NCBI GenBank assembly: GCA_017983615.1
Contig: JAGOBB010000002.1
Coordinates: 62,001-126,000, forward strand
DNA from: Azonexus sp.
GTDB taxonomy: Bacteria > Pseudomonadota > Gammaproteobacteria > Burkholderiales > Rhodocyclaceae
DNA: 64,000 nucleotides
Reading direction: 5' to 3'
Shown: positions 8,207-58,548 of the stretch, in pieces
Numbering within the stretch: the stretch's first letter is position 1
Layout: each line of letters starts with the position of its first letter
Made by a program: the position numbers and the translations under genes
The notes under the pieces: generated by a model
Databases searched by the model: none
What the model was told of the DNA's origin: nothing
What the model saw: only the letters and a program-made list of their open reading frames with translations

Positions 8207-10675
8207 ATGTCAAGAAAAAAGCTGTCAAAAATCCGTCGTGCCGACCCCTTCTTCGAGCGTGAATTGGCCCGCTATGAGTTTCCATTGCCGTCGCGTGAGT
8301 ACGTGTCTCAGGTGCTGGCGGACGAAGGGCGACCGCTGGAGTTTGCCGAACTGATTGAACTGCTGGATATCACTAGCAGCGAACGCGAGATGTTCCAGCG
8401 CCGCCTCGGCGCCATGGAGCGCGAAGGGCAGTTGCTACGCAACCGCAAGGGCGCCTACATCCTGCCCGAACGGGCCAGCCTGACGCCGGGCCGTATCCAG
8501 GGGCATCCGGACGGCTATGGCTTCCTTGTCCCCGATGACGGCAGTGCCGACATCTTTCTCGACCAGCATCAGATGCGCAAGGTGCTGCATGGCGACCGGG
8601 CGCTGGTCCGGGTCACCGGCATCGACCGCAAGGGACGGCCTGAAGGCGGTATCGTCGAGGTCACCGAACGGGTCAATACGCGGATCGTTGGCCGGGTTTT
8701 TGTCGAGCATGGGGTGGTCGTCGTGGCGCCGGAGAACAAGCGCATTGCCCAGGATATCCTGGTGCCGCCGGAGAGCAAGGCGAAGCACAAGCCGCAATCC
8801 GGACAGGTGGTGATGGTCGAGATCATCGAGCAGCCGAGCAAGTTCTCGCAGCCGATCGGCAAGATTATCGAGGTGCTCGGCAACTACGCCGATCCGGGCA
8901 TGGAAATCGAGATCGCGCTGCGCAAGCACGATCTGCCGTTCGAGTTTTCGAGGGCGGCGCTGGACGAGAACAAGGCGCTGCCGGACAAGGTCAAGAAAGC
9001 TGATTTTGCCGGCCGCGAGGATTTGCGCGAATTGCCGCTAGTGACCATCGACGGCGAGACGGCACGTGATTTCGACGACGCGGTGTTCTGCGAGAAGAAG
9101 GGGCGTGGCTGGCGGCTGGTGGTGGCGATTGCTGACGTCTCGCATTACGTCAAGCCGGGCATGGCGCTCGACAAGGAGGCGCTGGAGCGCGGCAATTCGG
9201 TGTATTTCCCGCGCCGGGTCATCCCGATGCTGCCGGAGAAACTGTCGAACGGTATCTGTTCGCTGAATCCGGACGTCGAGCGGATGGCCATGGTTTGCGA
9301 CATGGAGATCAGTTCGAGCGGCAAGATCGGCAAGTACCGCTTTTATCCGGCGGTTTTTCGCTCGCATGCCCGGCTGACCTATAACCTGGTGTGGTCGTGG
9401 CTGGCCGGTGAAAAAGTGCCGGAAACCGATGCCCACCGTAGCGTTTTGCCGCACGTGCAGAACCTCTACAAGCTGTTCGGCGCTTTGCACAAGGCGCGCG
9501 GCCAGCGTGGCGCGATCGATTTCGAGACCACCGAGACGCAGATGCTATTCAACGATCAGGGCAAGATCGAGAACATCGTGCCGGTGGTGCGCAACGACGC
9601 CCACCGCATCATCGAGGAGTGCATGCTGGCGGCCAATGTCTGCGCCTCGGATTTCCTGGCCGAGCACAAGCAGACCTGCCTCTACCGCATCCACGAGTCG
9701 CCGTCGGAAGACAAGCTGAAGAACCTGCGCGCCTTCCTCGGCGAGTTCGGCCTGGCTCTCGGCGGCGGAGATGCGCCGACGGCCAAGGATTACGGCCTGC
9801 TGCTCGAAAAGGTCAAGCTGCGTCCCGATTTCCAGTTGTTGCAGACGGTCATGCTGCGTTCGCTGAAGCAGGCGATGTACAGCCCGGACAACGTCGGCCA
9901 CTTCGGCCTGGCCTACGAGCATTACACCCACTTCACCTCGCCGATTCGTCGTTACCCCGACCTGCTGGTGCATCGGGCGATCAAGGCGGTGCTCGCCGGC
10001 GAGAAGTATGTGCCGACCCGCGAGTGGGACGACATCGGCCTGCAATGTTCGTCGACCGAACGCAGGGCTGACGAGGCGACGCGCGACGTCGAGAACTGGC
10101 TGAAGTGCTTCTTCATGAAGGAGCGCATCGGCGAGGAATTTGACGGGACGATTTCGGCGGTGACGGCATTCGGCATTTTCGTGGCGCTCGACACCATCTA
10201 CATCGAAGGCCTGGTGCATGTTTCAGAACTCGGTTCGGATTATTTCCAGTTCGACAACATCAAGCACCAGATGCTCGGTGAGCGGACCGGTCAGCGTTTC
10301 CGGCTCGGTGACAGGGTGCGGGTCAGGCTGGTCCGGGCGGATCTGGAGTCTAATCGGATCGACTTCGTGCTGGCTGGTGACGACAAGGCGTCGCGGGGCC
10401 GGGGCGGGGCTGGAAAGACCTCGCCGAAGTCGGCTGGTCGTCCGGTCGTGGCCAGGGCGTCCGTTGAACATGAGCGGCCGCCTGTGTCAGCCGTCAAGTC
10501 TGCAGGTCGGGCGAGGAGCAAGACCACGGCCAAGCCGGTGGCAGCGGTCAAGACAAGCTCGCCGGCAAAGGCAGCTGCCAAGCCAGCCGGCAAGAAGAAA
10601 ACGTCTACTAGCAAGGCCAAGGTCGGCGCCGGCAAAGCGCCGCGGAAAACGGCCCAAAAAAAGGGGCGACCGTAG
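8207..10675 (+). CDS. rnr: Ribonuclease R
   Basis: A processive 3'-5' exoribonuclease of 822 residues (E. coli about 813) that degrades structured RNA. Seen: N-terminal helix-turn-helix-like and cold-shock domains, the RNB catalytic centre with GETARDFDDAV, and a C-terminal S1 domain starting near EEFDGTISAVTAFGIFV. A Lys/Ala/Pro-rich basic tail of about 100 residues follows. The start is ATG 8207 (MSRKKLSKIRR); the frame is open further upstream, but that region is the antisense of the tRNA. The stop codon itself lies inside a copy of the dispersed repeat. rlmB, its usual partner, is two genes away. Confidence 0.96.
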   Translation: MSRKKLSKIRRADPFFERELARYEFPLPSREYVSQVLADEGRPLEFAELIELLDITSSEREMFQRRLGAMEREGQLLRNRKGAYILPERASLTPGRIQGHPDGYGFLVPDDGSADIFLDQHQMRKVLHGDRALVRVTGIDRKGRPEGGIVEVTERVNTRIVGRVFVEHGVVVVAPENKRIAQDILVPPESKAKHKPQSGQVVMVEIIEQPSKFSQPIGKIIEVLGNYADPGMEIEIALRKHDLPFEFSRAALDENKALPDKVKKADFAGREDLRELPLVTIDGETARDFDDAVFCEKKGRGWRLVVAIADVSHYVKPGMALDKEALERGNSVYFPRRVIPMLPEKLSNGICSLNPDVERMAMVCDMEISSSGKIGKYRFYPAVFRSHARLTYNLVWSWLAGEKVPETDAHRSVLPHVQNLYKLFGALHKARGQRGAIDFETTETQMLFNDQGKIENIVPVVRNDAHRIIEECMLAANVCASDFLAEHKQTCLYRIHESPSEDKLKNLRAFLGEFGLALGGGDAPTAKDYGLLLEKVKLRPDFQLLQTVMLRSLKQAMYSPDNVGHFGLAYEHYTHFTSPIRRYPDLLVHRAIKAVLAGEKYVPTREWDDIGLQCSSTERRADEATRDVENWLKCFFMKERIGEEFDGTISAVTAFGIFVALDTIYIEGLVHVSELGSDYFQFDNIKHQMLGERTGQRFRLGDRVRVRLVRADLESNRIDFVLAGDDKASRGRGGAGKTSPKSAGRPVVARASVEHERPPVSAVKSAGRARSKTTAKPVAAVKTSSPAKAAAKPAGKKKTSTSKAKVGAGKAPRKTAQKKGRP

Positions 10676-10680
10676 CATTC
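10643..10680 (+). repeat. Dispersed uptake-signal-like repeat, copy A
   Basis: Core CGACCGTAGCATTC at 10667-10680, preceded by GGCCC, an A7 run and GGGG. It supplies the rnr stop codon (the TAG of CGTAGC). This copy has an A-run where most have a T-run in this orientation. Confidence 0.75.
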
Positions 10681-10681
10681 G

Positions 10682-11548
10682 TCAGTGGTGCGTCGGGTCG
10701 AGCAGGTCGTTGGTCTTGTGAACGATGTTGGCGACCTGGCTTTCGTCCAGGCCGGGCAATTGCTCGGTCAGCCACTCGAGAGTCGCGCCGGGGATGATGT
10801 GCTTGGCTTCGGCGATGTCGGAAGGCAGCGCCGGGCTTTCACCGCCTTCGGCATGAAGATGGCGGGCCGTGTCGACGCACAGGCGGGACAGGTTGGCGCG
10901 GGTGTTGTCGACGCCGCGGATCAGTTGTGTCAGCAGGCCGGGCAGGTGCCAGATCAAGGCGACCTTGAGCGTGAGATCCTTGAAGCGGAACCCACAGGTA
11001 TCCAACTGGGCCTGCACCGAGCGCTGCGAGTGCCCTGAATGCAATGCTGCCAGGGCAGTTTGCGGGATTTCATCGGCAAAGGACCAGAGCAGCAATTCGC
11101 CGATTTCGGAGAGCAGGGCGGCCATGGCAATTTCATCGGGCGAGACATCGGCTCGGGCCGATCCCCAGCGCAGGGCAAGCCGGCTGGCCAGATGGGCTCG
11201 CGCTTCGCATTCGACCAGGCCAGGGTTGCTTTCATCGGTTTCCGGGCATTCGAGCAGCAGCTTGTGGAAAGTATCCGTGCCAAGCTGCATGACGGCGCCG
11301 AGCGGTGTGGTTGTTTCATGGCCTAGGCGTTGGGCGCGATGATTTTCGGCTTCGCGTAGGAGTCGCAGGCAGAGAAACGGGTCGGCGGCTGCGATGTCGG
11401 CGAGATCGCGGGCAGCCAGGCGTTCTCCCTGTGCCGCCTCGAGTTCAAGCAGGCGTGCCTTGGAGCGTGGCATGCAGGGCAATTCCCGGCTGCTCAGATA
11501 GGCTGCCCATTGATCGACGCCCCACCGTTTCTGGTTCTCCGTCAGCAC
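10682..11548 (-). CDS. HDOD-domain protein
   Basis: A 288-residue protein with one HDOD domain, an HD-superfamily fold lacking the metal-binding His-Asp set, found in bacterial signalling proteins. Seen: LPCMPRSKARLLELE start of the domain, DPFLCLRLLREAE, and the C-terminal helices with VALIWHLPGLLTQLI. No EAL or receiver domain is attached. The start codon is GTG at 11548. It converges on rnr with only six bases between stops and lies opposite to the hemerythrin gene. The target process is unknown. Confidence 0.85.
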   Translation of the reverse strand: MLTENQKRWGVDQWAAYLSSRELPCMPRSKARLLELEAAQGERLAARDLADIAAADPFLCLRLLREAENHRAQRLGHETTTPLGAVMQLGTDTFHKLLLECPETDESNPGLVECEARAHLASRLALRWGSARADVSPDEIAMAALLSEIGELLLWSFADEIPQTALAALHSGHSQRSVQAQLDTCGFRFKDLTLKVALIWHLPGLLTQLIRGVDNTRANLSRLCVDTARHLHAEGGESPALPSDIAEAKHIIPGATLEWLTEQLPGLDESQVANIVHKTNDLLDPTHH

Positions 11549-11661
11549 GTTATCCCCTCGTTGGCTGTTGGGCGGACATTACTACAAAAGTTGACAATTT
11601 AATGGGCGGATAGATTCGCAGTCGCTGTAGAATAATTGCCTTTACTACTTTCGGAATAGCG

Positions 11662-12225: not shown

Positions 12226-12302
12226 CCGGTCGCGGCCGGCGCGGTTTTTGGCAGCAGCAGCGGGCAGGGTAAAATTCGCCATCCGAATTCACGAAAGCCC
12301 CC

Positions 12303-13034: not shown

Positions 13035-13036
13035 AT

Positions 13037-14017: not shown

Positions 14018-14138
14018 GGAGTGTCTCCGATCGATTTTGGGTGGTGCTCGAAGGTGAAGCGCGCCGGGTATTCCGGTCTGATGGTGCCGGAAACATACCC
14101 CTAGGCGGAACCCTTGTCAAAGCCTGCACTGCCTCTGT

Positions 14139-15482
14139 TCATCGGGAACGGGAGAGGTCGAGGTCGGCGCGGTTGATTTCATCGACATAGATGCCGGTAG
14201 ATGCCGGCTGGCTACTGGCATGACAGGCGACTTCGACGTTGGCCAGTGGCTTTGCCTTGTGCAGCACCTCCACCGCACAGCGCCCGAAAACACTGTCGAT
14301 GGTGGCCAGAAGATGGCGGGCGTAGGGCGTTTCCAGCTTGCCGTCGAGGATCAGGTTGGCGAGCAGCACGCCGTCCGGCTTCAGCACGCGGCGGGTGGCG
14401 GCCCAGAACTCGCGGGTGACCAGATGGCTCGGGATGGCGGTGTGCGAGCTGTAGACATCGACGACGACGGCATCGAAGCGGCGTTCAGTGGTGGCTATGA
14501 AGCGCCGGGCATCGTCGGCGATGAACTCGCCGCGTGCCGGCTCGCGCAGGAAGTGCTTTTCGGCGATGGCGCGGATGGCCGGGTCGATGTCGACGTAGGT
14601 GTAGCGATTGAGTGGTTCGCGGTGCGACAGCGTGAAGCCGCCAGCGCCGAGGACCAGAATGTCCTTGTCCTTGAAGCCGAGGTCATCGAGCAGGACCTGG
14701 CGCAGGTGCTTGATGTAGCGCGTGTAGTTGGGCGGTTCGCTGTCATCGAGCAGGGAGGCCAGCGACTTGTTGACGAAGAAGGCGCGCGGCGCTTGCTGGC
14801 CGGGCAGTTCGACCGGGCCGACGATGTACTCGGCGTAGGCGGTGTCGGCAGTGACCGGCGACTGGAGATTGAGCAGGGCGGCAAATGCTACGGTGAGCAG
14901 CGAAAAAAGGCCAAATTTCAAATTTCTGCCGGTGAGCAGCACGACGCCAACGAGCAGTCCGAGCGAGCAGGCGAACACCGCGGCCGACACCCCCAGCCAT
15001 TGCATGACGAGCAGCGACAGCGTCAGCGAGCCGAGGAAGGAGCCGAGGGTGGACCAGTAAAGCGCCAGGCCGCTGGCTTCGCCGGTTCGTTCGGCCTGCA
15101 TCAGGTTGGTCAGGATCGGCACGGTCTGGCCGAGCAGCCAGGCCAGCGGGCAGAGGATGCCGGCGATGAAGCACAGGTAGGCGAACAGCGCCGGTTGCAG
15201 GTGGGCGAACATGCCGTCGACGGTGAGGCCGGCCAGCCCGATGCCGGCCAGCGCGGCCGAGATCAGGAAATTGCGGGCGACGATGCGCCGGTAGTCGGCC
15301 GCCACCCGGGCGCCGGAGGCGTAGCCGAGAGCCAGGGCGAGCAGGAAGAAACCGATGGTCGGCGCGGTGACGACGATGGAACTGCCGACATGCGGTACCA
15401 GCCGGCGCAGGGCGATGACCTCGGCGCCGAGCGAGCAGAAGCCTTCGATGAAGACGATGGCGTAGAGCAGGGTGCGAGACAT
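14139..15482 (-). CDS. Membrane-fused spermidine-synthase-like methyltransferase-fold protein
   Basis: A 447-residue protein. The N-terminal half has about seven hydrophobic segments (MSRTLLYAIVFIEGFCSLGAE onward). The C-terminal half is a spermidine-synthase-type Rossmann domain: LVLGAGGFTLSH, then YVDIDPAI and VVVDVYSSHTAIPSHL. The substrate is unknown; fused family members are often annotated as spermidine synthases without proof. The start overlaps the rarD stop (ATGA). A copy of the dispersed repeat lies inside the gene and encodes LKFGLFSLLTVAF. Confidence 0.85.
   Translation of the reverse strand: MSRTLLYAIVFIEGFCSLGAEVIALRRLVPHVGSSIVVTAPTIGFFLLALALGYASGARVAADYRRIVARNFLISAALAGIGLAGLTVDGMFAHLQPALFAYLCFIAGILCPLAWLLGQTVPILTNLMQAERTGEASGLALYWSTLGSFLGSLTLSLLVMQWLGVSAAVFACSLGLLVGVVLLTGRNLKFGLFSLLTVAFAALLNLQSPVTADTAYAEYIVGPVELPGQQAPRAFFVNKSLASLLDDSEPPNYTRYIKHLRQVLLDDLGFKDKDILVLGAGGFTLSHREPLNRYTYVDIDPAIRAIAEKHFLREPARGEFIADDARRFIATTERRFDAVVVDVYSSHTAIPSHLVTREFWAATRRVLKPDGVLLANLILDGKLETPYARHLLATIDSVFGRCAVEVLHKAKPLANVEVACHASSQPASTGIYVDEINRADLDLSRSR
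14883..14925 (-). repeat. Dispersed uptake-signal-like repeat, copy B
   Basis: On the plus strand: core AAATGCTACGGT at 14883-14894, then an A6 tract, GGCC, and AAATTT twice. It is in frame inside the membrane-fused spermidine-synthase-like gene, sense-oriented with that gene by the T-tract-first reading. Confidence 0.85.
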
Positions 15483-16369
15483 CAGCCCGGCCTCCGGTGC
15501 TTCTGCCAGGCGCTCCAGCTAAAGATGAACAGGCCGAGCCAGATCAGCGCGAAACTGGCCAGCCGGGCCGGCTGCAGCGGTTCATCGAAGACGACCACGG
15601 CAGTGAGGAATTGCATGGTCGGATTGATGTACATCAGCATGCCGACCATGGCCAGGTCGAGGCGCTGGGTGGCAGCAGCGAAGGCCATCAGCGGCAGGGC
15701 GGTCAGGATACCCGAGCCGACCAGCAATGCTACGGTACCCCCCTCAAAAAGGCCAAAAACGAAATGTCCCTGCTGCGCCTGCCAAACCGTGTAGATCAGG
15801 CAGAGCGGCAGCATGGCCAGGGTTTCCAGGCACAGCCCGGAAATGGCGTCGACCGGCACCTGCTTGCGCAGCAGGCCGTAGCTGCCGAAGGTCAGGGCGA
15901 GGAACAGCGAAATCCACGGCAGGGTGCCAAGCGTAGCCAGTTCGTTGCCGACGGCGATGACGGCCAGACCGATGGCCGCCCATTCCTTGCCGTTGAGCTT
16001 TTCCTTGAGGACGAGCAGGCCGAGCAGCACATTGACCAGCGGGGTCAGGAAGTAGCCGAGGCTGGAGGCGACGACCTGATGGTGATTGACCGCCCACAGG
16101 AAGCCCAGCCAATTGGCGCTGAGCAACAGCGCGGCAAGCGCCAGGCGGACGAGGTGGCGGGGTGTCGCGAACAGGGCGAAGACGTTCGCCCAGCGGTGGC
16201 GCAGCGTGAGCAGCAATGCCACGAAGGCAAAGGCCCAGGTGGTCCGGTGACAGAGGATGTCGATCGGCTCGATCGCCGCCAGTTGGCGAAAATAAAGCGG
16301 GAAGAAGCCCCAGATGACATAGGCGGTCAGACCGTAGGCGATGCCGGCCAGCGGGGCTTGCCGGTTCAT
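15482..16369 (-). CDS. rarD: EamA-family transporter RarD
   Basis: A 295-residue inner-membrane protein with ten predicted spans and the RarD opening GIAYGLTAYVIWGFFPLYF. HRTTWAF, NHHQVVASSLGYFLTPLVN and QRLDLAMVGMLMYINPT are family landmarks. The substrate of RarD proteins is not established. It starts four bases after the DUF599 stop and overlaps the next gene by ATGA, so the three form an operon. The dispersed repeat encodes FVFGLFEGGTVALL in the loop after IYTVWQAQQ. Confidence 0.92.
   Translation of the reverse strand: MNRQAPLAGIAYGLTAYVIWGFFPLYFRQLAAIEPIDILCHRTTWAFAFVALLLTLRHRWANVFALFATPRHLVRLALAALLLSANWLGFLWAVNHHQVVASSLGYFLTPLVNVLLGLLVLKEKLNGKEWAAIGLAVIAVGNELATLGTLPWISLFLALTFGSYGLLRKQVPVDAISGLCLETLAMLPLCLIYTVWQAQQGHFVFGLFEGGTVALLVGSGILTALPLMAFAAATQRLDLAMVGMLMYINPTMQFLTAVVVFDEPLQPARLASFALIWLGLFIFSWSAWQKHRRPG
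15724..15766 (-). repeat. Dispersed uptake-signal-like repeat, copy C
   Basis: On the plus strand: core GCAATGCTACGGT at 15724-15736, a C-rich spacer, A5, GGCC, then AAAAACGAAAT. It lies within rarD in frame. Confidence 0.8.
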
Positions 16370-18790: not shown

Positions 18791-18800
18791 GCGCCCGAGA

Positions 18801-18841
18801 ATTCTGATTTTGGCCGCTTTTTGGGCCGACCGTAGCATTTG
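18801..18841 (+). repeat. Dispersed uptake-signal-like repeat, copy D
   Basis: ATTTTGGCC, a T5 run, GGGCC and core GACCGTAGCATTTG, starting 11 bases after a stop codon. Among the best matches to the family consensus. Confidence 0.9.
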
Positions 18842-25855: not shown

Positions 25856-25979
25856 AAATTCAAATTTGCTTTTTTTTCGGGGCGACCGCGCCCCGCAGGA
25901 ATCCACAGCGACGCGCCAGCTAAGCGGGCCGTCTGGCTGTGCAGGGGCTTCATCAGTCCCCTTGGGGGATAGCATTTGG
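25856..25979 (+). repeat. Dispersed uptake-signal-like repeat, copy E (split)
   Basis: The A/T tracts (AAATTCAAATTTG, T8) and GGGGCGACCG lie at 25856-25888. The rest of the core, TAGCATTTGG, is at 25970-25979, separated by 81 unrelated bases. It starts 13 bases after a stop codon. The second half is short, so its assignment is less certain. Confidence 0.5.
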
Positions 25980-27502: not shown

Positions 27503-29035
27503 TCAGAAGGTTTTCAGGAACTCGACCAGCGCCATCTTCTCGGCCGGGCTGAGTTCGGTGCCGTAGGCCTTGCCCTCGTGGCCGCCGTTGCCGTTGCCGG
27601 GCTGGCTGGTGTCGAGGCGGAAGAACTTCTTGCCGTCGGCTTCGGCGACGGAGGAGACGAAGCCCATCTTGACCGGGTCGTAGACGTCGTAGCCGCGATA
27701 GAAGGCCTTGGGCCGCTTGGCCGAGGGTTCGAGCAGGTCGCGCAGGCTGGGCACCGAGCCGTTGTGCAGGTAGGGCGCGCGCAGCCACAGGCCGTCGAGC
27801 GGCATGTTGGCGTAGCCGTGGGTCTTCTGGAAATGCGTGAAGCGCCACGGGTAGCCGGCGTAGAGCGTCGCCTGGTTGACGGCCAGCGTGTAGGTGTAGG
27901 AGTCCAGCCGGCGGCGGTCGGTGCCGATTTTGGCCAGCGGCTCGACGGTGCCGACGTACTTGCCGGTGAAGTCGCTGCCGGAAGCGCCGTGGCAGTCGGC
28001 ACAGTATTTCTGGTAGATCGGCGCGCCCTGGGCGGCAATGCTACGGTCGATGGCAAAAAAGTCCGAAAATGCAGGTGGCCGGGCATCCAGGATCCAGTCC
28101 TCGACGCGCTTGATGCGCTGGAGGTCGATGGTCGGCGGTGTCGTGCCGGTGCCGAAGGCGGCGCTCTTGTTGCGCTCCTCGACGGTGGTGTTGTTGCCAT
28201 CCCAGTGCAGTTGCATCTCCTTCGGCTCCTTGCGCTGGCGTTGCAGCCAGATTGACGGGAAGTCGGCCGGGGCGTCGAACTCCTTCGGGTCGAGGTGGCT
28301 CATCGGGAAATTGAAGATGACCTTGGCCGAGTTGAAGGTGTCGACCCGGCCCGGACCCCATTCCTGCTGCTTGAACACCCAGTCGAAGCGCCCGGCCAGC
28401 GCCAGTACCCGGTCACGCATGATGGCGATGGCGATCGGGTAGACGAGATAGCGGTCGAGCAGGTCGAGCTTGCCGCCCTGTTTCTCGATTTCCGGAAGGA
28501 TGTATTCCTTCGAGAATTTCGGATCGGCGGCGCAACGGAAGAAGAATTCCTCGAAGCCCTTCATGTTGAAGGTGGCGGCCGGCATGCCCAGTACGATGGT
28601 GGCTGGTTTGTCGGCGGCGGTACGCACGGTACTGACGTGGCAGGCGGCGCAATTGACGAACACGCGGTCGATGCCCTGGAAGCGGCGCTTCGAGGTGCCG
28701 ATCGGCACGTCTCGGTCGGTGCCGTCCGGATTTTTCTCGTAGACCATGCCCAGCGACTGGTAGCCCTTGCCCGGCAGGTACTGCGGGCAGACCTCCGGAA
28801 GCGCCCGCCAGATCCAGTACGGGAAGCCCATTTCGTGTTCGCCGCCGGTCGAACCGTATTTGAAGTGTTCGGCCGGGCTGGCGTGATCGACTGGTTCATC
28901 GCCGCCGAAGCGCTGCAGCATCACCATGCCAATAAAGGCTGGCAAGGCGATGGTGAGGATGAAAAGGATCAGGAAGCGGCGCTTCCAGGGACTGGCGTTT
29001 TGTTCGCCGGGGCTTGATTCGAGTTGTTCATTCAT
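27503..29035 (-). CDS. Diheme c-type cytochrome, RoxA/MauG-like
   Basis: A 510-residue paralogue of the downstream cytochrome. One N-terminal span (about 20-40) anchors it. Heme sites are CAACH at 129-133 and CADCH at 344-348. APYLHNGSVPSLRDLLEPSAKRPK near the end matches the neighbour almost exactly. A dispersed-repeat copy encodes AFSDFFAIDRSIA (321-333) just before the second heme, aligned without any gap to the neighbour. GGGGG upstream of ATG 29035 fits as ribosome binding site. Confidence 0.88.
   Translation of the reverse strand: MNEQLESSPGEQNASPWKRRFLILFILTIALPAFIGMVMLQRFGGDEPVDHASPAEHFKYGSTGGEHEMGFPYWIWRALPEVCPQYLPGKGYQSLGMVYEKNPDGTDRDVPIGTSKRRFQGIDRVFVNCAACHVSTVRTAADKPATIVLGMPAATFNMKGFEEFFFRCAADPKFSKEYILPEIEKQGGKLDLLDRYLVYPIAIAIMRDRVLALAGRFDWVFKQQEWGPGRVDTFNSAKVIFNFPMSHLDPKEFDAPADFPSIWLQRQRKEPKEMQLHWDGNNTTVEERNKSAAFGTGTTPPTIDLQRIKRVEDWILDARPPAFSDFFAIDRSIAAQGAPIYQKYCADCHGASGSDFTGKYVGTVEPLAKIGTDRRRLDSYTYTLAVNQATLYAGYPWRFTHFQKTHGYANMPLDGLWLRAPYLHNGSVPSLRDLLEPSAKRPKAFYRGYDVYDPVKMGFVSSVAEADGKKFFRLDTSQPGNGNGGHEGKAYGTELSPAEKMALVEFLKTF
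28036..28072 (-). repeat. Dispersed uptake-signal-like repeat, copy F
   Basis: On the plus strand: AATGCTACGGTCG at 28037-28049, then A6 and GAAAAT one turn later. It is coding sequence of a diheme cytochrome, sense-oriented. Confidence 0.88.
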
Positions 29036-34783: not shown

Positions 34784-34899
34784 ACGTTTCTCCCCCGTCA
34801 ACGCTGATGACTGCCGGACCGCTCGGGCCGGCTTGCTGGTTTTATGACATATGCAGCTTGCGAAAGTTCAAACGCTGTTTTGCCGGGCCGCCCCGGAGC

Positions 34900-34942
34900 A
34901 AATTTGGAAAATGGCCGTTTTTTTGGCCGACCGTAGCATTTG
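34900..34942 (+). repeat. Dispersed uptake-signal-like repeat, copy G
   Basis: AAATTTGGAAAATGGCC, T7, GGCC and core CGACCGTAGCATTTG. It sits in the 166-base spacer between fumC and the large cytochrome gene, opposite in strand to both. One of the most complete copies. Confidence 0.92.
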
Positions 34943-39477: not shown

Positions 39478-39510
39478 GCAGCCCTGTCGCCGGAACTTTC
39501 CGGCCGCAGC

Positions 39511-39553
39511 TATTTTGATTTTTGCCCTTTTTTGCGGCCGACCGTAGCATTTG
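39511..39553 (+). repeat. Dispersed uptake-signal-like repeat, copy H
   Basis: TATTTTGATTTTTGCCC, T6, GCGGCCG and core GACCGTAGCATTTG, starting 34 bases after the kinase stop codon, in sense orientation. Confidence 0.92.
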
Positions 39554-40650: not shown

Positions 40651-40719
40651 TTTCGGTTTTTGCCTGTTTTTGGCACCGACCCTGGGGCCAGCCTTTGATT
40701 CTATGGTCGTAGCATTTGG
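40651..40719 (+). repeat. Dispersed uptake-signal-like repeat, copy I (split)
   Basis: The A/T tracts and GGCACCGACC lie at 40651-40682; TCGTAGCATTTGG is at 40707-40719, after a 24-base interruption. It starts 26 bases after a stop codon. Confidence 0.65.
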
Positions 40720-40767: not shown

Positions 40768-42486
40768 CTAATGGACTTTACGGTATTCGCCGAGCAGGCG
40801 CTGGTGCAGGTCGCAGCCGGCGAGGTCGAGGCACGGTGAGACCAGCCCGAAGAAGCGCACTTCGCCGTCGATCAGGTCACTTGCCAGGTCCAGCGTTTCC
40901 TCGCCGTAGAGGCTGACCAGGGCGTCTTCGAAGGCATTCGGATCTTCCATGTCGAGCAGCGTGGCGATGCAGCGATAGACGCGGCGGCGGCTGGCGTCGA
41001 GCTGTTCGAACTGGCGCACCCATTCGCAGCCTTCGAGGGTGGCGTCGGTGTCGCCGACGGCCAGGGCCAGCAGGGTCTTGAGTTCGCCAATACGGAGGTC
41101 TGCCCACAGCGAGGCGGGGTCCGGGGCGAGGCCGATCAGCGCGGCAACCGGGCGTTCGTCGGCGATGTTCAGTTCGTTCAGGGTATCGAGCAGCTGGCCG
41201 CACTGGTCGTCGTCGAGTTCGGCCAGATTCAGGATGGCCGGGCGGACGGCGGCACCGTTGCTGTTGTTTTCCCATTCCAGGTCGTCGATTGGGTAGATCT
41301 CGGACATGCCGGGGACCAGGATGCGGCAGGCGTAGACGCCGAGGTGATCGAAGTCGGCGACGTAGATGTCGTGCCCGTCGGCATGGATGCGTGCGGTGAG
41401 CCATGCGTAGTCGTCGGCGGTCTTGCCGTTTTCGATGTCGTTGAAGTTCCAGTCGACGAAGTCGAAGTCCGGCGTATCGCCAAAGAAGTCCCAGTGAACG
41501 ATGCCGCTGGAGTCGACGAAATGGATTTCGAGGTTTGGCGCGGTCGCCACTTCGTCGAGGTCGAAGCCGGGCGGCGGGAAGCCGTCGAGGGCTTCGAGGG
41601 CGCGGCCCTGGAGCAGCTCGGTCAGGGCGCGCTCAAGGGCGATTTCGAAGCGCGGATGCGCCCCGAAGCTGGCGAAGACACCCTGGTCGCGCGGGTTGAG
41701 CAAGGCCACACACATCACCGGGTAGTGGCCGCCCAGCGAGGCGTCCTTGACCAGGATGCCGAAGCCGGCGTCGCGCAGGCCCTGGAGGCCGGCGGCGATG
41801 GTCGGGTAGCGCGCGATGACGTCATCCGGGACGTCGGGTAGGCACAAACCCTCGGCGATGACCTTGAACTTGATGTGGCGTTCGAGGATTTCCGACAACG
41901 CCTGGGCGCGTGCCTCGGTCGGCGTGTTGCCGGCCGCCATGCCGTTGCTGACGTAGAGGTTGCCGACGATGTTAACCGGAAAGAAGACCCCGGCGCCATC
42001 GCGTTGGCGGACGTAGGGAATGGCGCAGATGCCGCGTTCGTAGTGGCCGGTGTTCATGTCGATCAGCGCTTCGGCCGGGATGCTGCCTTCCGGGTTGTAG
42101 AAGGCCTGCAACTCCGGGGTCAGCAGTTCGACCGGCCAGTCGGCGCCGGTGACCGGGAACCAGCGCTCGCGCGGGTAGTGGGCGAATTCGCCGTTGGCGA
42201 TGGTGTCGCCGAGGTAGTAATGGTTCCAGAAATAGTTGCACGACAGGCGCTCGAAGAACTCGCCCAGCGCGCTGGCGAGAGCGGCCAGCCTGCCGGCGCC
42301 CTTGCCGTTGGTGAACATCAGCGGGCAGGCGCGGTTGCGAACATGCACCGACCAGACATTTTCAACCGGATTGAGCCATGAGTATTCCTCGATGTCGAAA
42401 CCGCGCTCGGCTAGCCTGGCCTGCATCGTGGCGATGGAGTGCTCTAGCGAGGCGTCTTTGCCCGGGATGAAGTGTTCGTTTTGCAT
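40768..42486 (-). CDS. ycaO: YcaO family protein (E. coli YcaO type)
   Basis: A 572-residue YcaO-fold ATP-dependent enzyme related to azoline-forming cyclodehydratases. Its opening FIPGKDASLEHSIATMQARL and the segments NVWSVHVRNRACPLMFTNGKGAGRLAALASALGEFFERLS closely match E. coli YcaO, which is linked to S12 beta-methylthiolation and has no known peptide substrate. The C-terminal half is the extra acidic domain of that subfamily. AGGA seven bases before ATG 42486 sets the start. There is no precursor peptide or dehydrogenase nearby, so it is not a RiPP cluster. Confidence 0.9.
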   Translation of the reverse strand: MQNEHFIPGKDASLEHSIATMQARLAERGFDIEEYSWLNPVENVWSVHVRNRACPLMFTNGKGAGRLAALASALGEFFERLSCNYFWNHYYLGDTIANGEFAHYPRERWFPVTGADWPVELLTPELQAFYNPEGSIPAEALIDMNTGHYERGICAIPYVRQRDGAGVFFPVNIVGNLYVSNGMAAGNTPTEARAQALSEILERHIKFKVIAEGLCLPDVPDDVIARYPTIAAGLQGLRDAGFGILVKDASLGGHYPVMCVALLNPRDQGVFASFGAHPRFEIALERALTELLQGRALEALDGFPPPGFDLDEVATAPNLEIHFVDSSGIVHWDFFGDTPDFDFVDWNFNDIENGKTADDYAWLTARIHADGHDIYVADFDHLGVYACRILVPGMSEIYPIDDLEWENNSNGAAVRPAILNLAELDDDQCGQLLDTLNELNIADERPVAALIGLAPDPASLWADLRIGELKTLLALAVGDTDATLEGCEWVRQFEQLDASRRRVYRCIATLLDMEDPNAFEDALVSLYGEETLDLASDLIDGEVRFFGLVSPCLDLAGCDLHQRLLGEYRKVH

Positions 42487-42946
42487 CGGGCGTCCTGCCA
42501 TGAGAGTGAGCCGCGGAGTGTACGCCAAGGGGGCGGAATGCCTTAGTGAATTCGTTCCTTCGCGGGGTCGGGATGGTCAGCACCGAAACACGGAATAGGC
42601 CATGGCCAAAAGGCTGGCGCCGAACGCTACGGTCGCCTCGAAAAAAAGGCAATTTTCGAAATCTGGCTGGCGAGCCAGTGCAAACGTCTCTCTTCCCAAA
42701 ATTGAGATGGCGCTCTTGGAATTGAGCACAGTCTGCTTGCGGAAAAGGCCTGGTATTCTTATTCAAGCGATTGTTTATTAATTGTTTTATTGGCTTAAAG
42801 ATCAGCGGCACGATGCTTGCGTTCCGACTGGAGAACTACGCGTTGAAGCGATACAGTCGGTCCGCAATGCGTGCCAAATCGATCGGCTATTCGATCTCGG
42901 GGCGAGAGGGCGCAGTTTCAGCGGGGACTTCAGTGAGCGTGATCAG
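42487..42946. other. 460-base divergent spacer
   Basis: The stretch between ycaO and the heme-sensing GGDEF gene. It holds repeat copy J at 42621-42663 and an AT-rich tract at about 42755-42795 that could contain promoters. An in-frame upstream extension of the GGDEF gene to 42782 is open but encodes no recognisable sequence. I see nothing else. Confidence 0.5.
42621..42663 (-). repeat. Dispersed uptake-signal-like repeat, copy J
   Basis: On the plus strand: CGAACGCTACGGTCG (one core change), A7, GGC, AATTTTCGAAAT. Intergenic. Confidence 0.82.
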
Positions 42947-51506: not shown

Positions 51507-51534
51507 GGCGCCGTTCGCGTGGCGAATCGGGTGT

Positions 51535-52415: not shown

Positions 52416-52445
52416 CGTTTCTTGGCTTCGTGTGATGGGCTTGGC

Positions 52446-52487
52446 CTACGCCTTCATATGAAGGCGACATTCCTTGGATTCCGGACT
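52446..52487 (-). pseudogene. Remnant of a second cysH 3' end
   Basis: Read on the minus strand this encodes SPESKECRLHMKA followed by TAG. The intact cysH just upstream ends in NPESKECGLHVKG. The fragment lies 70-110 bases downstream of that stop, in the same orientation. No longer cysH similarity is visible between them. It looks like a leftover of a tandem duplication or of an older cysH tail. Confidence 0.55.
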
Positions 52488-52513
52488 TTGTCTTCGGCCG
52501 GCGCTGCGCGCCT

Positions 52514-52534
52514 TAACTTCGCGGTGCGAAGTTA
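52514..52534 (-). terminator. Perfect hairpin after cysH
   Basis: TAACTTCGC and GCGAAGTTA form a 9-bp perfect stem with a three-base loop, 23 bases beyond the cysH stop. No T-run follows, so it may stabilise the 3' end rather than terminate. Confidence 0.45.
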
Positions 52535-52556
52535 GCCTGCGACGAAACCCCGAGTA

Positions 52557-53276: not shown

Positions 53277-53283
53277 GAAGTCC

Positions 53284-53793: not shown

Positions 53794-55466
53794 TATGCGG
53801 CCTCCTGTTGTGCTGCCTTGGCCTTGCCGTGGGCGCGGCCTTCGTAAACGCGGTTCTTGAACGGGTCGATGCCGATGCGATCGAAGGTGTCGAGGAAACG
53901 CTCGTCAGCATGGCGGTGTTCGAGATAAACCTTGATGATCTTGTCGACGACATCCGGCATTTCCTCGGCCGCGAACGATGGGCCGATGACCTTGCCGAGC
54001 TTCGCGTCGTTGCCTTGGCGCCCACCGAGGGTGACCTGGTAGAACTCCGAATCGTTCTTATCGACGCCCAGCACGCCGATGTGGCCAACGTGGTGGTGGC
54101 CACAGGCATTCATGCAGCCGGAGATGTTGAGGTCAATCTCACCGATGTCGAACAGGTAGTCGAGATCGTCGAAACGGGCCTGGATGGCATTGGCGATGGG
54201 AATGGACTTGGCGTTGGCCAGATCGCAGAAATCGCCGCCCGGGCAGCAGATGATCCCGGTCAGCAGGCCGGTGTTCGGCGTCGCCAGTCCAGCAGCCTTG
54301 GCCTTCTGCCAGACTTCGTGGAGGTCGGACTTTTTGACGTCGGCCAGGATGATGTTCTGCTCGTGGCTGATGCGTAGCTCGCCGAAGCTGTACTCGTCGG
54401 CGAGGTCGGCGACGGCCAGCATCTGTTCGGAAGTGATGTCGCCTGGCGCCACGCCTGGCTTTTTGAGCGACAGCGTGACGGCGGCGTAGCCGGGCACCTT
54501 GTGTGGGTGAATGCTACGGTCGGCCCAATTTTTGAAGGCTTTTTCAGACGGCAGTTCGGGTTCGTCCAGCTTTTCGTAGGCCGGGGCGGTGAAATGGCTG
54601 GCGACGCGCTCGAATTCGGCTTGCGTGATGGTGGCCGGGCCGTCCTTGGTGTGCGCCCATTCTTCTTCGACCTGTCTGGCGAATTCCTCAACGCCGAGCG
54701 CCTGGACGAGAATCTTGATGCGCGCCTTGTAGGCGTTGTCGCGGCGGCCCTGGCGGTTGTAGACGCGCAGGATCGCTTCGCAATAGGTCAGGATGTGCTG
54801 CCAGGGCAGAAATTCGCGCACGATCTGACCGCGGATCGGTGTGCGGCCCAAGCCGCCGCCGACGATGACGCGGAAGCCTGTCTCGCCGTTCTGTTGCTGC
54901 AGTTGCAGGCCGATGTCGTGGAACCAGGTGACGGCGCGGTCTTCCCGGGTGCCGGAAATGGCGATCTTGAACTTGCGCGGCAAGAAAGCGAACTCCGGGT
55001 GGAAGGTCGTCCACTGGCGGAGGATTTCAGCCAACGGTCGCGGGTCGATGATCTCGTCAGCCGCGACGCCGGCAAACTGGTCGGTGGTGATGTTGCGCAG
55101 GCAGTTGCCGGAAGTCTGGATGGCGTGCATCTCGACTTCGGCCAGTTCGGCGAGTATCTCGGGGACATCCTCGACTTTTGGCCAGTTGAGCTGCAGGTTG
55201 TGACGCGTCGTGAAGTGGCCGTAGCCCCGGTCGTATTTGTGGGCGACGCGGGCCAGCCTGCGCATCTGGGCCGAATTCATCATCGCGTAGGGCACGGCGA
55301 TCCGGAACATTGGCGCGTGGCGCTGGATGTAGAGACCGTTTTGCAGGCGCAGCGGGCGGAATTCATCGTCGCTCAACTCGCCGGCTTTCCAGCGGCGGAC
55401 CTGATCGCGGAATTGCTCGACGCGCTCGTTGATCAGCTGGCGGTCGATGGCATCGTATTTATACAT
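53793..55466 (-). CDS. cysI: Sulfite reductase hemoprotein (CysI-type)
   Basis: A 557-residue siroheme protein that reduces sulfite to sulfide. Two ferredoxin-like repeats precede the cluster-ligand region: IICCPGGDFCDLANAKS and SGCMNACGHHHVGHIG. The N-terminal parts RGYGHFTTRHNLQLNW and TSGNCLRNITTDQFAG match the nitrite/sulfite reductase family. AAGGA before ATG 55466 (MYKYDAID) sets the start. No cysJ lies nearby, so the electron donor is unknown. A repeat copy encodes FKNWADRSIH. Confidence 0.93.
   Translation of the reverse strand: MYKYDAIDRQLINERVEQFRDQVRRWKAGELSDDEFRPLRLQNGLYIQRHAPMFRIAVPYAMMNSAQMRRLARVAHKYDRGYGHFTTRHNLQLNWPKVEDVPEILAELAEVEMHAIQTSGNCLRNITTDQFAGVAADEIIDPRPLAEILRQWTTFHPEFAFLPRKFKIAISGTREDRAVTWFHDIGLQLQQQNGETGFRVIVGGGLGRTPIRGQIVREFLPWQHILTYCEAILRVYNRQGRRDNAYKARIKILVQALGVEEFARQVEEEWAHTKDGPATITQAEFERVASHFTAPAYEKLDEPELPSEKAFKNWADRSIHPHKVPGYAAVTLSLKKPGVAPGDITSEQMLAVADLADEYSFGELRISHEQNIILADVKKSDLHEVWQKAKAAGLATPNTGLLTGIICCPGGDFCDLANAKSIPIANAIQARFDDLDYLFDIGEIDLNISGCMNACGHHHVGHIGVLGVDKNDSEFYQVTLGGRQGNDAKLGKVIGPSFAAEEMPDVVDKIIKVYLEHRHADERFLDTFDRIGIDPFKNRVYEGRAHGKAKAAQQEAA
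54509..54545 (-). repeat. Dispersed uptake-signal-like repeat, copy K
   Basis: On the plus strand: AATGCTACGGTCG at 54510-54522, GGCCC, AATTTTT, then CTTTTT about one turn on. In frame inside cysI. Confidence 0.8.
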
Positions 55467-55488
55467 GGAACGTCCTTGGGGTAATACG

Positions 55489-56265
55489 TCAGGCAAAAAC
55501 CAGCTTGGTGCCGATCAGCACCAGCATGGCAGCCAACAGGCGGCGAAGAATATGCTCCGGCACCTTGGCGGAAACATGGGTGCCCACCCAGATACCGGGC
55601 AGCGAACCGAGCAACAGTGCGCCGAGCAACGCCCAGTCGACGCCGCCGAGGAGCCAGTGGCCAAGCCCGGCAACCAGCGTCAGCGGTACGGCATGGGCGA
55701 CATCCGATCCGACAATCTTGACCGGCGAAAGTTTTGGGTAGAGGAAGAACAGCGCTGCGACGCCCAGTGCGCCGGCGCCGACTGACGAAATGGTGACCAG
55801 CACGCCAAGGACGGCGCCGACGGCGACGGTGATCTTGCCCAGGCAGCATCGGCGCAGGGCCGAATCATCGTGCTTGCTGGCATAGTCGCGCAGCTTGCGG
55901 CCGAACAGCAGTGCAATGGCGGTCAGCAACAACGCAAAGCCGAGGCCATGCGAGATGAGCTGGCCGATAACATTGCTACCCTTGGGCAGTTGCGACAGCA
56001 CCCAGAGCGTAACCGCCGCGGCAGGAATGCTGCCGGCAGCCAGGCGGCCAGTGATGGCCCAGTCGATATGCCCCTTCCGGCCGTGGGCGACGGTGCCGCC
56101 GGCCTTGGTCATCGCTGCGTAAAGCAGGTCGGTGCCTACCGCCGTGGCCGGCGGAACGCCGAATAGCAGCACGAGAAGCGGCGTCATCAGCGAGCCGCCG
56201 CCAACGCCGGTCAGGCCTACAATCGCACCGACTGCGAAGCCGGAAAGGGTGTAAAGGTAATCCAT
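55489..56265 (-). CDS. TauE/SafE-family sulfite/anion exporter
   Basis: A 258-residue inner-membrane protein with about eight spans. The repeated family motif appears as GAIVGLTGVGGGSLMTPLL near the start and GVLVTISSVGAGALGVAAL after the midpoint. It heads the cysI-DUF934-cysH run by 22 bases, which suggests sulfite or another sulfur oxyanion as substrate, by inference. Divergent from the CysB gene. Confidence 0.92.
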   Translation of the reverse strand: MDYLYTLSGFAVGAIVGLTGVGGGSLMTPLLVLLFGVPPATAVGTDLLYAAMTKAGGTVAHGRKGHIDWAITGRLAAGSIPAAAVTLWVLSQLPKGSNVIGQLISHGLGFALLLTAIALLFGRKLRDYASKHDDSALRRCCLGKITVAVGAVLGVLVTISSVGAGALGVAALFFLYPKLSPVKIVGSDVAHAVPLTLVAGLGHWLLGGVDWALLGALLLGSLPGIWVGTHVSAKVPEHILRRLLAAMLVLIGTKLVFA

Positions 56266-56335
56266 AGCCTACATCGTAGCAGCGGCCATTTGAATCAAAA
56301 AGAATATTGGGTTAGATTGTTATAGCGGCTGGTTA

Positions 56336-56386
56336 TTAGGATCGAGGATCGAGCTGCGAGCAAACCCACTCGATCCTCGATCCTAA
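56336..56386. promoter_or_regulatory. 18-bp perfect inverted repeat in the cysB leader
   Basis: TTAGGATCGAGGATCGAG (56336-56353) and its exact complement (56369-56386) enclose a 15-base loop. A third partial copy, CACTCGATCCTCGA, runs straight into the ATG of cysB. The usual purine-rich ribosome binding site is absent there. Confidence 0.85.
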
Positions 56387-56401
56387 GCACTCGATCCTCG
56401 A

Positions 56402-57343
56402 ATGAAACTCCAACAGCTACGCTACATCGTCGAAATCCAGCGTCAGGGCCTGAATGTCTCTGAGGCGGCCGAGTCGCTCTACACCTCGCAGCCTGGCATT
56501 TCCAAGCAGGTCAAGCTGCTCGAGGACGAACTCGGTATCGCCATCTTCGAACGCAGTGGCAAGCGCTTCACCGGTGTGACCGAGCCCGGCAAGGTTGTCC
56601 TGAGCATTGCCGAACGCATCCTTCGCGAAGCGGAAAACCTCAAGCGGGCAAGCAGCGAGTTTGCTACCGGTGACACCGGCCGGCTGGTGCTGGCAGCAAC
56701 CCATACCCAGGCACGCTACGCGCTACCGGTGGTCGTTCGCGACTTCATGGCGCAGCACCAGGACGTCAAGCTGGAAATGCACCAGGGCAGCCCGACCCAG
56801 ATCGCCGAGTGGGTGATGGCGGGCGATGCCGACATCGGTATTGCCACTGAAGCACTCGACCAGTATCCGCAATTGATCTCGTTGCCGGTGCGCCAGTGGA
56901 CGCATTGCGTGATCGCTCCGGAGGGGCATCCCATCCTCAAGTCGCAGCCGCTGTCGTTGAATGAACTGGCACGATGGCCACTGATTACTTACGACACGGC
57001 CTTTACCGGCCGTTCGCGGATCAATCGCGCCTTCGAGCGCATCGGCGTGCAACCCAATGTTGCGCTGACTGCCCTCGATGCCGATGTGATCAAGACCTAC
57101 GTCAGCCTTGGCCTCGGTCTCGGCATTATTTCAGCGCTGGCTTTCGATGCCCAGCGCGACATCGGACTGGTCGCCACCGATGCAGCCCACCTGTTCGAGT
57201 CCAATACGACCCGGCTGGCGCTGCGCCGCGGTACTTATCTGCGCCGCTACGATTACGATTTGATCTCCCTGTTCGCGCCGCACCTCTCTAAGCGGGTCGT
57301 GGACATGGCCATGCAGGGCGGCGGCGACGAATATCAGTTGTGA
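56402..57343 (+). CDS. cysB: CysB-type LysR regulator
   Basis: A 313-residue LysR regulator of sulfur assimilation. The opening MKLQQLRYIVEIQRQGLNVSEAAESLYTSQPGISKQVKLLE is the CysB helix-turn-helix. The effector domain contains ATHTQARYALPVVV and GSPTQIAEWV, where the family binds O-acetyl- or N-acetylserine. It is divergent from the sulfite exporter and cysI operon, its likely target, along with cysDN. The leader carries a long hairpin and no clear ribosome binding site. Confidence 0.95.
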   Translation: MKLQQLRYIVEIQRQGLNVSEAAESLYTSQPGISKQVKLLEDELGIAIFERSGKRFTGVTEPGKVVLSIAERILREAENLKRASSEFATGDTGRLVLAATHTQARYALPVVVRDFMAQHQDVKLEMHQGSPTQIAEWVMAGDADIGIATEALDQYPQLISLPVRQWTHCVIAPEGHPILKSQPLSLNELARWPLITYDTAFTGRSRINRAFERIGVQPNVALTALDADVIKTYVSLGLGLGIISALAFDAQRDIGLVATDAAHLFESNTTRLALRRGTYLRRYDYDLISLFAPHLSKRVVDMAMQGGGDEYQL

Positions 57344-58548
57344 CGCCCCATGCGCGGCGCAGTGTCACGCAGGATCAGGGATGGCGCCGAAAACGGCGCC
57401 AGTTTTTCGAGAAAGTCGAGCAATTCGAGGACCGGTGAGTTGCGGAAGAAGGTGGCGCTCGGCGTTTCTATCCAGATTCGGTCGGCCCAGGCGTGCAGTT
57501 CGTGCGGCGTGTCGCCGAAGCCGTCGGCGTCGAGGTCGAAGCCCTCGTAGTTGTCCCAGCTGTTGCCCCACCACGTGTCGTTCATCGGGTCGCCGTCGCC
57601 GATGATCGTGACCGGCCACAGATTGCTGCGGAAGGTGTTGTTGATGGCAATGTGGCCGCCCTTGGCACCATAGAAATAGATGCCGGTAATGTTGTGGGCG
57701 ATCAGGTTGTCGACGAACACGATGCGGTTGATCGGATTCATTGGCGAATCGGCCATGATGCCGTGGGCGCAATGGACGATCTCGTTGCCCTGGATCAGCG
57801 CTGCCGAGGTCTCCTTGAGCGCGATGCCGGCCCCGGAGGCGTCCATGGCGTGCAGGATGCGGTTGTGGCGGATGATCATTCCCTCGGAGTTGAGCGCAAT
57901 GATGCCGGTCGAGTTCTTCTCCAGCAGGTTGCGCTCGACCACGCTACGATGCGAAAAAAGGAAATTGAAGGCACGCCGGCTGTCGCGAACGGTGTTCCCG
58001 GTGTAACGATTACGCGGCGAGTTGCTGACCGTGATGTCGCGAATCCGGGCGATATCGTTGTCTTCGATGCGGTTGCCCGTGCTGTACCAGAGCCGCAGGC
58101 CATCGCCCCGGTCGGCCGAGTCGACGGGCCGCGAGCGGATACGGTTGTGGCGCACCATGCTGTCCGTCACCCGGTGTAGCGAGACGCCAAACAGCACGTC
58201 CTCGATGATGTTGTTCTCGATCAGCAAATGGCTGCCTTCGGCCATGATGCCGCCATCGATGGCATCGTGCGAGCCGCCGCTGTTCCGTACGGTGAGGCCT
58301 CGTATAGTCACGTGATCGGCCTTGATGGTCAGCACGGTTCCGGTGCCGCCACCGTCGATGATCACCTTGCCTATGCTCTCGAGCACCAACGGCTTTGCAA
58401 TGACAGCGGGTCCGCGATAAGTCCCTGCCGGCAGGCGCAACACGGTGCCTGGCAAGGCAGTATCGATCCAGGCTTGCAGGGATTGGTCGGCCGAGGCCGC
58501 CAGCGGCAGGAGCAGGCCGAGCAGCACGAGGATGAAACGGGGAATCAT
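57334..58548 (-). CDS. nosD: NosD-like periplasmic beta-helix protein
   Basis: A 404-residue secreted right-handed beta-helix protein. Signal peptide MIPRFILVLLGLLLPLAASA; then parallel beta-helix repeats (IENNIIEDVLFG, VRHNRIRSR, IEDNDIARIRD, IQGNEIVH). NosD helps build the copper sites of nitrous oxide reductase, but no nosZ, nosF or nosY is here, so the assignment to NosD rather than another beta-helix protein is a family-level call. It overlaps the cysB 3' end by ten bases. A repeat copy encodes NFLFSHRSVV. Confidence 0.82.
   Translation of the reverse strand: MIPRFILVLLGLLLPLAASADQSLQAWIDTALPGTVLRLPAGTYRGPAVIAKPLVLESIGKVIIDGGGTGTVLTIKADHVTIRGLTVRNSGGSHDAIDGGIMAEGSHLLIENNIIEDVLFGVSLHRVTDSMVRHNRIRSRPVDSADRGDGLRLWYSTGNRIEDNDIARIRDITVSNSPRNRYTGNTVRDSRRAFNFLFSHRSVVERNLLEKNSTGIIALNSEGMIIRHNRILHAMDASGAGIALKETSAALIQGNEIVHCAHGIMADSPMNPINRIVFVDNLIAHNITGIYFYGAKGGHIAINNTFRSNLWPVTIIGDGDPMNDTWWGNSWDNYEGFDLDADGFGDTPHELHAWADRIWIETPSATFFRNSPVLELLDFLEKLAPFSAPSLILRDTAPRMGRHN
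57941..57971 (-). repeat. Dispersed uptake-signal-like repeat, copy L (degenerate)
   Basis: On the plus strand: ACGCTACGATGCG, A6, GG, AAATTGAA. Two or three core changes; in frame inside nosD. Confidence 0.6.

What the first reader, a model, noticed from the sequence alone, without database searches (positions are those of the whole stretch)
10643..57971. A dispersed ~40-bp repeat with the layout of an extended DNA uptake signal
Twelve copies share core AAATGCTACGGTCG, a short GC spacer, an A-tract, and a second A/T tract that starts about 8-13 bases later, often with GGCC between. Copies lie at 10643, 14883, 15724, 18801, 25856 (split), 28036, 34900, 39511, 40651 (split), 42621, 54509 and 57941. 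The exact 9-mer ATGCTACGG or its complement occurs 11 times by my reading, against about 0.5 expected by chance in 64 kb of both strands. A fixed core followed by two A/T tracts one helical turn apart is the known layout of the Haemophilus USS; Neisseriaceae, another betaproteobacterial group, use a different DUS. I know of no such signal in Rhodocyclales. It could instead be a binding site for a nucleoid protein.
Basis: partly seen in the sequence, partly recalled or inferred. Interest (0 to 1): 0.88.

Follow-up and report, generated by a model that had tools for sequence, protein, structure and literature searches.

The report
New DNA uptake signal with dialects
This bacterium's genome carries hundreds of copies of a 40-letter DNA tag that looks like the self-recognition label some bacteria use when taking up DNA, and relatives carry the same tag in different spellings at the same places.

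Summary
The repeat is real. The window holds 10 significant copies (18.7-63.8 bits; control maximum 8.2). The genome holds 464 exact AATGCTACGGT, reversed control 0. Consensus: AAATGCTACGGTCGGCC, short spacer, AAAAA, GGCC, AAAAT, then a third tract; tracts start near +18, +29 and +36.

This spelling is dense in 3 of 76 genomes of the genus, one supported clade. Other members carry the same layout with another core: TGCGGTCRAC (20 genomes), CACGGTCRAC (12) or mixed (5). Samples of the order and class outside the genus were not enriched for these cores.

Copies do not look like insertions. At 19 alignable loci, 56 of 94 pairs with relatives hold TGCGGTC or CACGGTC at the site, against 3 of 666 at random positions. 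So sites were respelled in place.

Best reading: an uptake signal sequence with dialects, in a third bacterial group. Uptake is untested. Against it: ComEC integrity does not track the signal (p = 0.65), no receptor was found, density is lower than in known systems, and only 32 of 172 copies could be aligned.

The parts
4648..4694 (-). weak, degenerate copy (CAAGGCTACGGTAG core) inside a predicted gene
   Evidence: matrix score 18.7, control maximum 8.2
10635..10681 (-). element, T-tract form, at the 3' end of the ribonuclease R gene
   Evidence: score 29.0; gene
14882..14928 (+). element inside a fused MFS/spermidine-synthase-like gene; G021 and G069 have TGCGGTC at this place
   Evidence: score 53.5
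15724..15770 (+). element inside a rarD-like gene; G021 and G069 have TGCGGTC at this place
   Evidence: score 37.5
18795..18841 (-). element between convergent predicted genes
   Evidence: score 38.9
28035..28081 (+). element inside a di-heme cytochrome c peroxidase gene; TGCGGTC in G021, G024, G069, G092 and CACGGTC in G002, G056 at this place; signal-less G018 and G007 have neither
   Evidence: score 37.6
34896..34942 (-). element in a gap between two predicted genes of the same direction
   Evidence: score 42.1
39507..39553 (-). near-consensus element in a gap between convergent predicted genes
   Evidence: score 63.8
42621..42667 (+). element with CGCTACGGTCG core, in a gap between divergent predicted genes
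   Evidence: score 45.5; gene calls
54508..54554 (+). element, T-tract form, inside a nitrite/sulfite-reductase-like gene; G021 and G069 have TGTTGCGGTCGAC at this place
   Evidence: score 30.6
25856..25889 (-). degenerate site reading GCGGTCGCCCCGAAAAAAAAGCAAATTTGAATTT; possibly a remnant of another core
   Evidence: sequence; not significant with the matrix
40651..40717 (-). split site: AAATGCTACGACC, 26 bases, then CGGTGCCAAAAACAGGCAAAAACCGAAA
   Evidence: sequence; not significant with the matrix
57929..57967 (+). damaged site; the similar stretch of G021 (L111) reads TTGCGGTCGACCAGGCTGCGATGGGCAAAAAGGAAATTG
   Evidence: compared by eye; not significant with the matrix

Best explanation
The repeat is a DNA uptake signal sequence. 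Inferred mechanism: a receptor of the type IV pilus / competence machinery binds the core and the helically phased A/T tracts, so DNA of the same or a closely related species is taken up preferentially. DNA carrying the signal is recombined back more often, so point changes that improve the signal accumulate through this biased transfer (molecular drive). The genus shares one extended layout with several core dialects. In the ancestor of the window's three-species clade the receptor's preference shifted, and existing sites were respelled in place to AATGCTACGGTCGGCC. Shown here: abundance, layout, dialects by clade, in-place substitution at the alignable loci, bias to gene ends, presence of ComEC and pilin genes. 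Inferred: uptake, receptor, drive, and the extension from 19 loci to hundreds.
For: Abundance: 464 exact AATGCTACGGT in G000, 234/230 by strand, reversed control 0; 411 and 330 in two others, controls 0. Exact copies exceed one-mismatch copies, 23 to 9 in 164 kb of G000 and 22 to 9 in 180 kb of G078; the reversed pattern gives 0 to 5 and 0 to 6. Layout: 51 of 53 unselected G000 copies and 22 of 22 G078 copies have two tracts, against 3.8% of random positions. Dialects: 40 of 76 genus genomes have 20 or more copies of one or more of three cores (tabulated). In an 18-taxon tree of one locus the TACGG and the CACGG group are each one clade, 100/100. In-place change: 94 aligned pairs at 19 distinct loci, 56 with TGCGGTC or CACGGTC at the site (G069 18 of 25, G021 8 of 8, G056 6 of 7); 0 of 18 pairs with signal-less G007, G018, G059, G073, G082; random control 3 of 666. 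Location: 27 of 45 copies are intergenic or at gene boundaries although 88% of bases are called coding; of 25 with both neighbours known, 15 lie between convergent genes, 9 tandem, 1 divergent, while convergent gaps make up 27% of bases in gaps over 40 bp. ComEC is found in 71 of 76 genomes, including G000; FimT and a PilE-like pilin are present.
Against: No uptake data exist. Density, one exact core per 6.3 kb, is below the roughly one per kb given for Haemophilus and Neisseria (PMC1626085, passage). ComEC integrity is not associated with the signal: 2 of 5 genomes with a disrupted gene and 23 of 41 with an intact one carry it, Fisher p = 0.65; 18 good genomes with intact ComEC have under 20 copies. 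Signal carriers G002 and G008 have a split ComEC and G078 a short frame of 499 aa. FimT type does not visibly track signal or dialect (by eye). Only 32 of 172 copies could be aligned under my thresholds; 25 of the 94 pairs come from G069, and pairs repeat loci shared by the three TACGG genomes. 72 of 94 signal pairs have no net length change, against 625 of 666 random pairs, so indels are commoner at these sites than elsewhere; in 3 pairs the own copy is 4 or more bases longer and in 4 shorter. Six of the 18 signal-less pairs still read CGGTC at the site with other bases in front, and the 18 come from few loci.
Confidence: 0.8

Rival explanations
1. Binding site of a nucleoid-associated or chromosome-organising protein; the phased A-tracts bend DNA.
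For: A/T tracts about 11 and 7 bp apart; copies on both strands across the contigs.
Against: Core spelling differs between clades of one genus while sites are kept; 36 of 76 genus genomes have under 20 copies of any of the three cores; no enrichment outside the genus in the order sample. That conserved chromosome proteins rarely show such turnover is general knowledge, not a call.
Confidence: 0.1
2. A small mobile repeat (MITE or REP type) that spread by insertion.
For: High copy number of a 40-bp consensus; single stray copies of the 16-mer in G005, G049 and G055; most intergenic copies could not be aligned; indels somewhat commoner at the sites than at random positions.
Against: Relatives carry the alternative core at the same place in 56 of 94 pairs, and only 3 pairs have the own copy longer by 4 or more bases; 18 of 45 copies lie inside genes.
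Confidence: 0.03
3. A transcription terminator or other gene-end signal.
For: 15 of 25 non-genic copies lie between convergent genes; the A-tract gives a T-run on the other strand.
Against: 18 of 45 copies lie inside genes; one window copy lies between divergent genes (42621); clade-specific cores have no obvious use in a terminator. A secondary terminator role would be compatible with the best reading.
Confidence: 0.03
4. A recombination hotspot (Chi-like) or segregation (KOPS-like) motif.
For: Genome-wide, with a short core.
Against: Such motifs are usually strand-polarised along replication (recalled); here strands are mixed within contigs of G000 and in a relative, and the element is about 40 bp with several parts.
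Confidence: 0.02

Closest known systems
Uptake signal sequence (USS) of Pasteurellaceae (Hin AAGTGCGGT, Apl ACAAGCGGT)
   Same: Core with AT-rich segments on its 3' side; many copies; arises by substitution, not insertion; dialects by clade (passages of PMC1626085). The TGCGGTCRAC dialect of this genus contains the GCGGT inner core.
   Different: Other taxon; the window's core is TACGGTC; both full USS 9-mers are near absent (0 in the window); first tract begins 7 bases after the 11-mer, with a GGCC spacer and a third tract; lower density; uptake not tested.
DNA uptake sequence (DUS) of Neisseriaceae, eight dialects described
   Same: Dialects that follow phylogeny (PMC3630211 and PMC12616744, passages).
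   Different: GCCGTCTGAA-type core with CTG inner core and no flanking motifs; that 10-mer occurs once in the window and not in 280 kb of other G000/G078 sequence.

Membership tests
Pasteurellaceae USS | Core AAGTGCGGT or ACAAGCGGT | tested here: not met
   0 and 0 in the window, 0 and 1 in 100 kb more of G000. Relatives' TGCGGTCRAC shares only GCGGT.
Pasteurellaceae USS | Two AT-rich segments 3' of the core, about one turn apart | tested here: met
   Starts at +18 and +29; 51 of 53 copies. Distance from the core differs.
Pasteurellaceae USS | Host lies in Pasteurellaceae | tested here: not met
   The two other genomes dense in the element are records titled beta proteobacterium and are of the window's genus (G041/G042 are G089/G078 by positions and contig length).
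Pasteurellaceae USS | Competent cells prefer DNA carrying the motif | not testable with these tools
   Needs an uptake competition experiment.
Neisseriaceae DUS | GCCGTCTGAA-type core | tested here: not met
   1 in the window, 0 in 280 kb more of G000/G078, 1 in 1.32 Mb of relatives. Only this one DUS dialect was counted.
Neisseriaceae DUS | Receptor ComP, a minor pilin | tested here: inconclusive
   A PilE-like pilin heads the minor-pilin operon of G078 and a close copy lies beside FimT in G000. In solved chains it matches pilins in general, best a PilA; no link with dialect was seen.
Uptake signal sequences in general | Exact copies outnumber near-misses | tested here: met
   23:9 and 22:9; reversed pattern 0:5 and 0:6.
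Uptake signal sequences in general | Arise by substitution in place | tested here: met
   56 of 94 pairs hold another dialect core at the site, against 3 of 666; 32 of 172 copies alignable.
Uptake signal sequences in general | Presence goes with intact competence genes | tested here: not met
   No association with ComEC integrity in 46 genomes, Fisher p = 0.65. Recent loss of the gene would blur such a link.
Mobile repeat (MITE/REP) | Insertion gaps against relatives | tested here: not met
   3 of 94 pairs have the own copy 4 or more bases longer; 140 of 172 copies could not be tested.

The most novel reading that the evidence does not exclude
A third, independently evolved uptake-signal system, so far seen in one betaproteobacterial genus, with at least three core dialects on one extended 40-bp layout. 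One clade switched dialect and rewrote its sites, by extrapolation hundreds of them, in place. The genus's TGCGGTC dialect has converged on, or shares a receptor ancestry with, the GCGGT core of Haemophilus.
Probability: 0.72. Interest if true: 0.92.

Novelty: new variant of a known kind. Interest (0 to 1): 0.87.

Why it matters
[quoted passage not shown] A third group would show that self-labelling of DNA evolves repeatedly. This genus offers close species with different dialects at the same sites and close species without any, so the order of events in a dialect change, and the receptor behind it, become testable. The shared GCGGT core asks whether a common receptor surface favours it.

Tried and rejected
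Strand polarity: the listing looked one-sided for G056; the stretches read show both strands, so the listing is partial and no polarity is claimed.

ComEC loss as the cause of signal loss: suggestive in G018, G063 and G082, but over 46 genomes p = 0.65. That table used genomes at least 90% complete and at most 5% contaminated and left out those whose ComEC frame was under 700 aa or at a contig end without clear disruption.

FimT/GspH and the PilE-like pilin as receptor: no visible link with dialect in the alignments, and the FimT type of G000/G078 occurs in carriers and non-carriers alike. This was judged by eye; no count was made. Left open.

Viral contigs: 4 stretches carry the element, one copy each in the piece fetched; not pursued.

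Limits of the searches: the class sample used only AATGCTACGGT and the order sample only CGGTCRAC cores, so other signals elsewhere are not excluded. The genus counts need AAAA and GGC behind the core, so T-tract copies are missed. The de novo search printed nothing for 12 of 27 genomes; two of these, G024 and G051, do carry a signal by genome-wide counts, so a blank there is weak evidence of absence. Control windows were first-order Markov resamples. Gene calls come from a simple codon-usage caller that I wrote; some of its gaps exceed 1 kb and may hide genes.

Literature. Nothing listed reports such a signal outside the two known families, but only listings were seen (20 of 57, 12 of 101, 10 of 215), passages of three papers were read, no paper was read whole, and the library lacks preprints and most subscription journals. 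Unused: structure prediction, fold search, RNA family search.
Full report
Observation. The 9-mer ATGCTACGG occurs 11 times in the window, against 0.28 in shuffles. A matrix trained on 69 copies from outside the window finds ten copies inside it, at 18.7 to 63.8 bits; 30 resampled windows never exceed 8.2. Three of the exact 9-mers lack tracts.

Genome-wide. The own genome (2.92 Mb, 34 contigs) holds 464 exact AATGCTACGGT, 234 and 230 by strand, and none of the reversed control. In 164 kb of it exact cores outnumber one-mismatch cores 23 to 9; in 180 kb of G078, 22 to 9. Whole, the first two hold 411 and 330 exact 11-mers, controls 0, and the third 4, control 3. Among 369 genomes of the class only the own genome is enriched; the rest have 0 to 6.

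Anatomy. In 53 G000 copies chosen by the 11-mer alone the consensus runs AAATGCTACGGTCGGCC, a short spacer, AAAAA, GGC, AAAAT, C, AAA. Tract starts peak at +18, +29 and +35/+36 from the first A of the 11-mer. 51 of 53 copies have two tracts, against 3.8% of random positions; in G078 22 of 22.

Dialects. Stretches of 27 relatives were searched for k-mers followed by two tracts. They gave TGCGGTCGAC, TGCGGTCAAC, CACGGTCAAC and CACGGTCGAC in different species, and nothing in 12 (sequences). These copies have the same layout, with weaker tracts in some species. Genome-wide counts over the 76 genomes of the genus, controls 0 to 1, give 20 genomes TGCGG, 12 CACGG, 3 TACGG, 5 mixed, 5 with 6-19 copies and 31 with 0-5. 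In 300 genomes of the order, six of them of the same family but other genera, genomes outside the genus have 0 to 5 matches, like their controls. A tree of 18 members from one 5.7-kb locus puts the three TACGG genomes in one clade and four CACGG genomes in another, both 100/100; TGCGG is scattered and may be the older state there. The other 58 genomes of the genus are not in this tree.

Substitution in place. 172 distinct copies from G000, G078 and G089 were compared with the held stretches of relatives; 32 copies at 19 distinct loci aligned, giving 94 pairs. 39 pairs hold TGCGGTC and 17 CACGGTC at the site: G069 18 of 25, G021 8 of 8, G056 6 of 7. Five signal-less genomes hold neither in 18 pairs, though six of those still read CGGTC there. 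72 of 94 pairs have no net length change; 3 have the own copy longer by four or more bases and 4 shorter. At random positions 3 of 666 pairs hold such a core, and 625 of 666 have no net length change. Example: window 54514 reads GTGAATGCTACGGTCGGCCCAATTTTTGAAGGCTTTTTC; G021 reads GTGGGTGTTGCGGTCGACCCACTTTTGAAAGGCTTTTTC. At these loci the copies are old sites that were respelled.

Location. With a simple gene caller, 18 of 45 exact copies in 344 kb are inside genes and 27 intergenic or at boundaries, although 88% of bases are called coding. Of 25 non-genic copies with both neighbours known, 15 lie between convergent genes, 9 between tandem and 1 between divergent genes; convergent gaps make up 27% of the bases in gaps over 40 bp. 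One inexact window copy (42621) lies between divergent genes.

Competence genes. ComEC is found in 71 of 76 genomes and all 51 good ones. It is truncated or split in G018, G063 and G082, which lack the signal, but also in G002 and G008, which have it. Over 46 genomes there is no association. FimT-type genes and a PilE-like pilin are present; neither visibly tracks dialect, so the receptor is unknown.

Interpretation. Abundance, strand balance, excess of exact copies, phased tracts, clade-specific dialects and in-place respelling together are what known uptake signals show, and no rival accounts well for the dialects. The step from pattern to uptake is inference. PMC12616744 (passages) names only Neisseriaceae and Pasteurellaceae as families with such motif-specific binding and gives GCGG as the inner USS core. 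That USS are not insertions and have two 3' AT segments is from PMC1626085 (passages); DUS dialects from PMC3630211 (passages). The literature listings that I saw report no such signal in this group.

Noticed in passing
L136, L142, L143, L154, L155 (G020, G079, G011): TGCGGTCGACCGCA and CACGGTCGACCGTG form palindromes: two cores in opposite directions sharing GTCGAC, offset 13 nt, in several places.
   Followed up: partly
G018, G063, G082, G002, G008: ComEC looks truncated, split or interrupted; in G082 and G002 two parts lie over 30 kb apart, split near the same place (the smaller G002 part is under the family cut-off).
   Followed up: partly
L196:10230, L197:6785, L198:305, L199:4734: Four viral contigs carry one copy each in the piece fetched; L198 and L199 share nearly the same copy and flank.
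   Followed up: no
L038:433 (CTSoil_120, same genus): One near-consensus TACGG copy in a genome with few others; its flanks are about 80-89% identical to stretches of the two TACGG genomes. That genome is listed as 10% contaminated, so transfer or binning error is possible.
   Followed up: partly
minor-pilin loci L175, L183-L195: Two kinds of fimT cluster occur: one headed by a short PilE-like pilin and with a FimT ending in RMCDP...C, the other without these.
   Followed up: partly
window 40783-42532 and G000:C7:2263-4018: The YcaO-type gene of the window has a second stretch, 87% identical, elsewhere in the genome.
   Followed up: no
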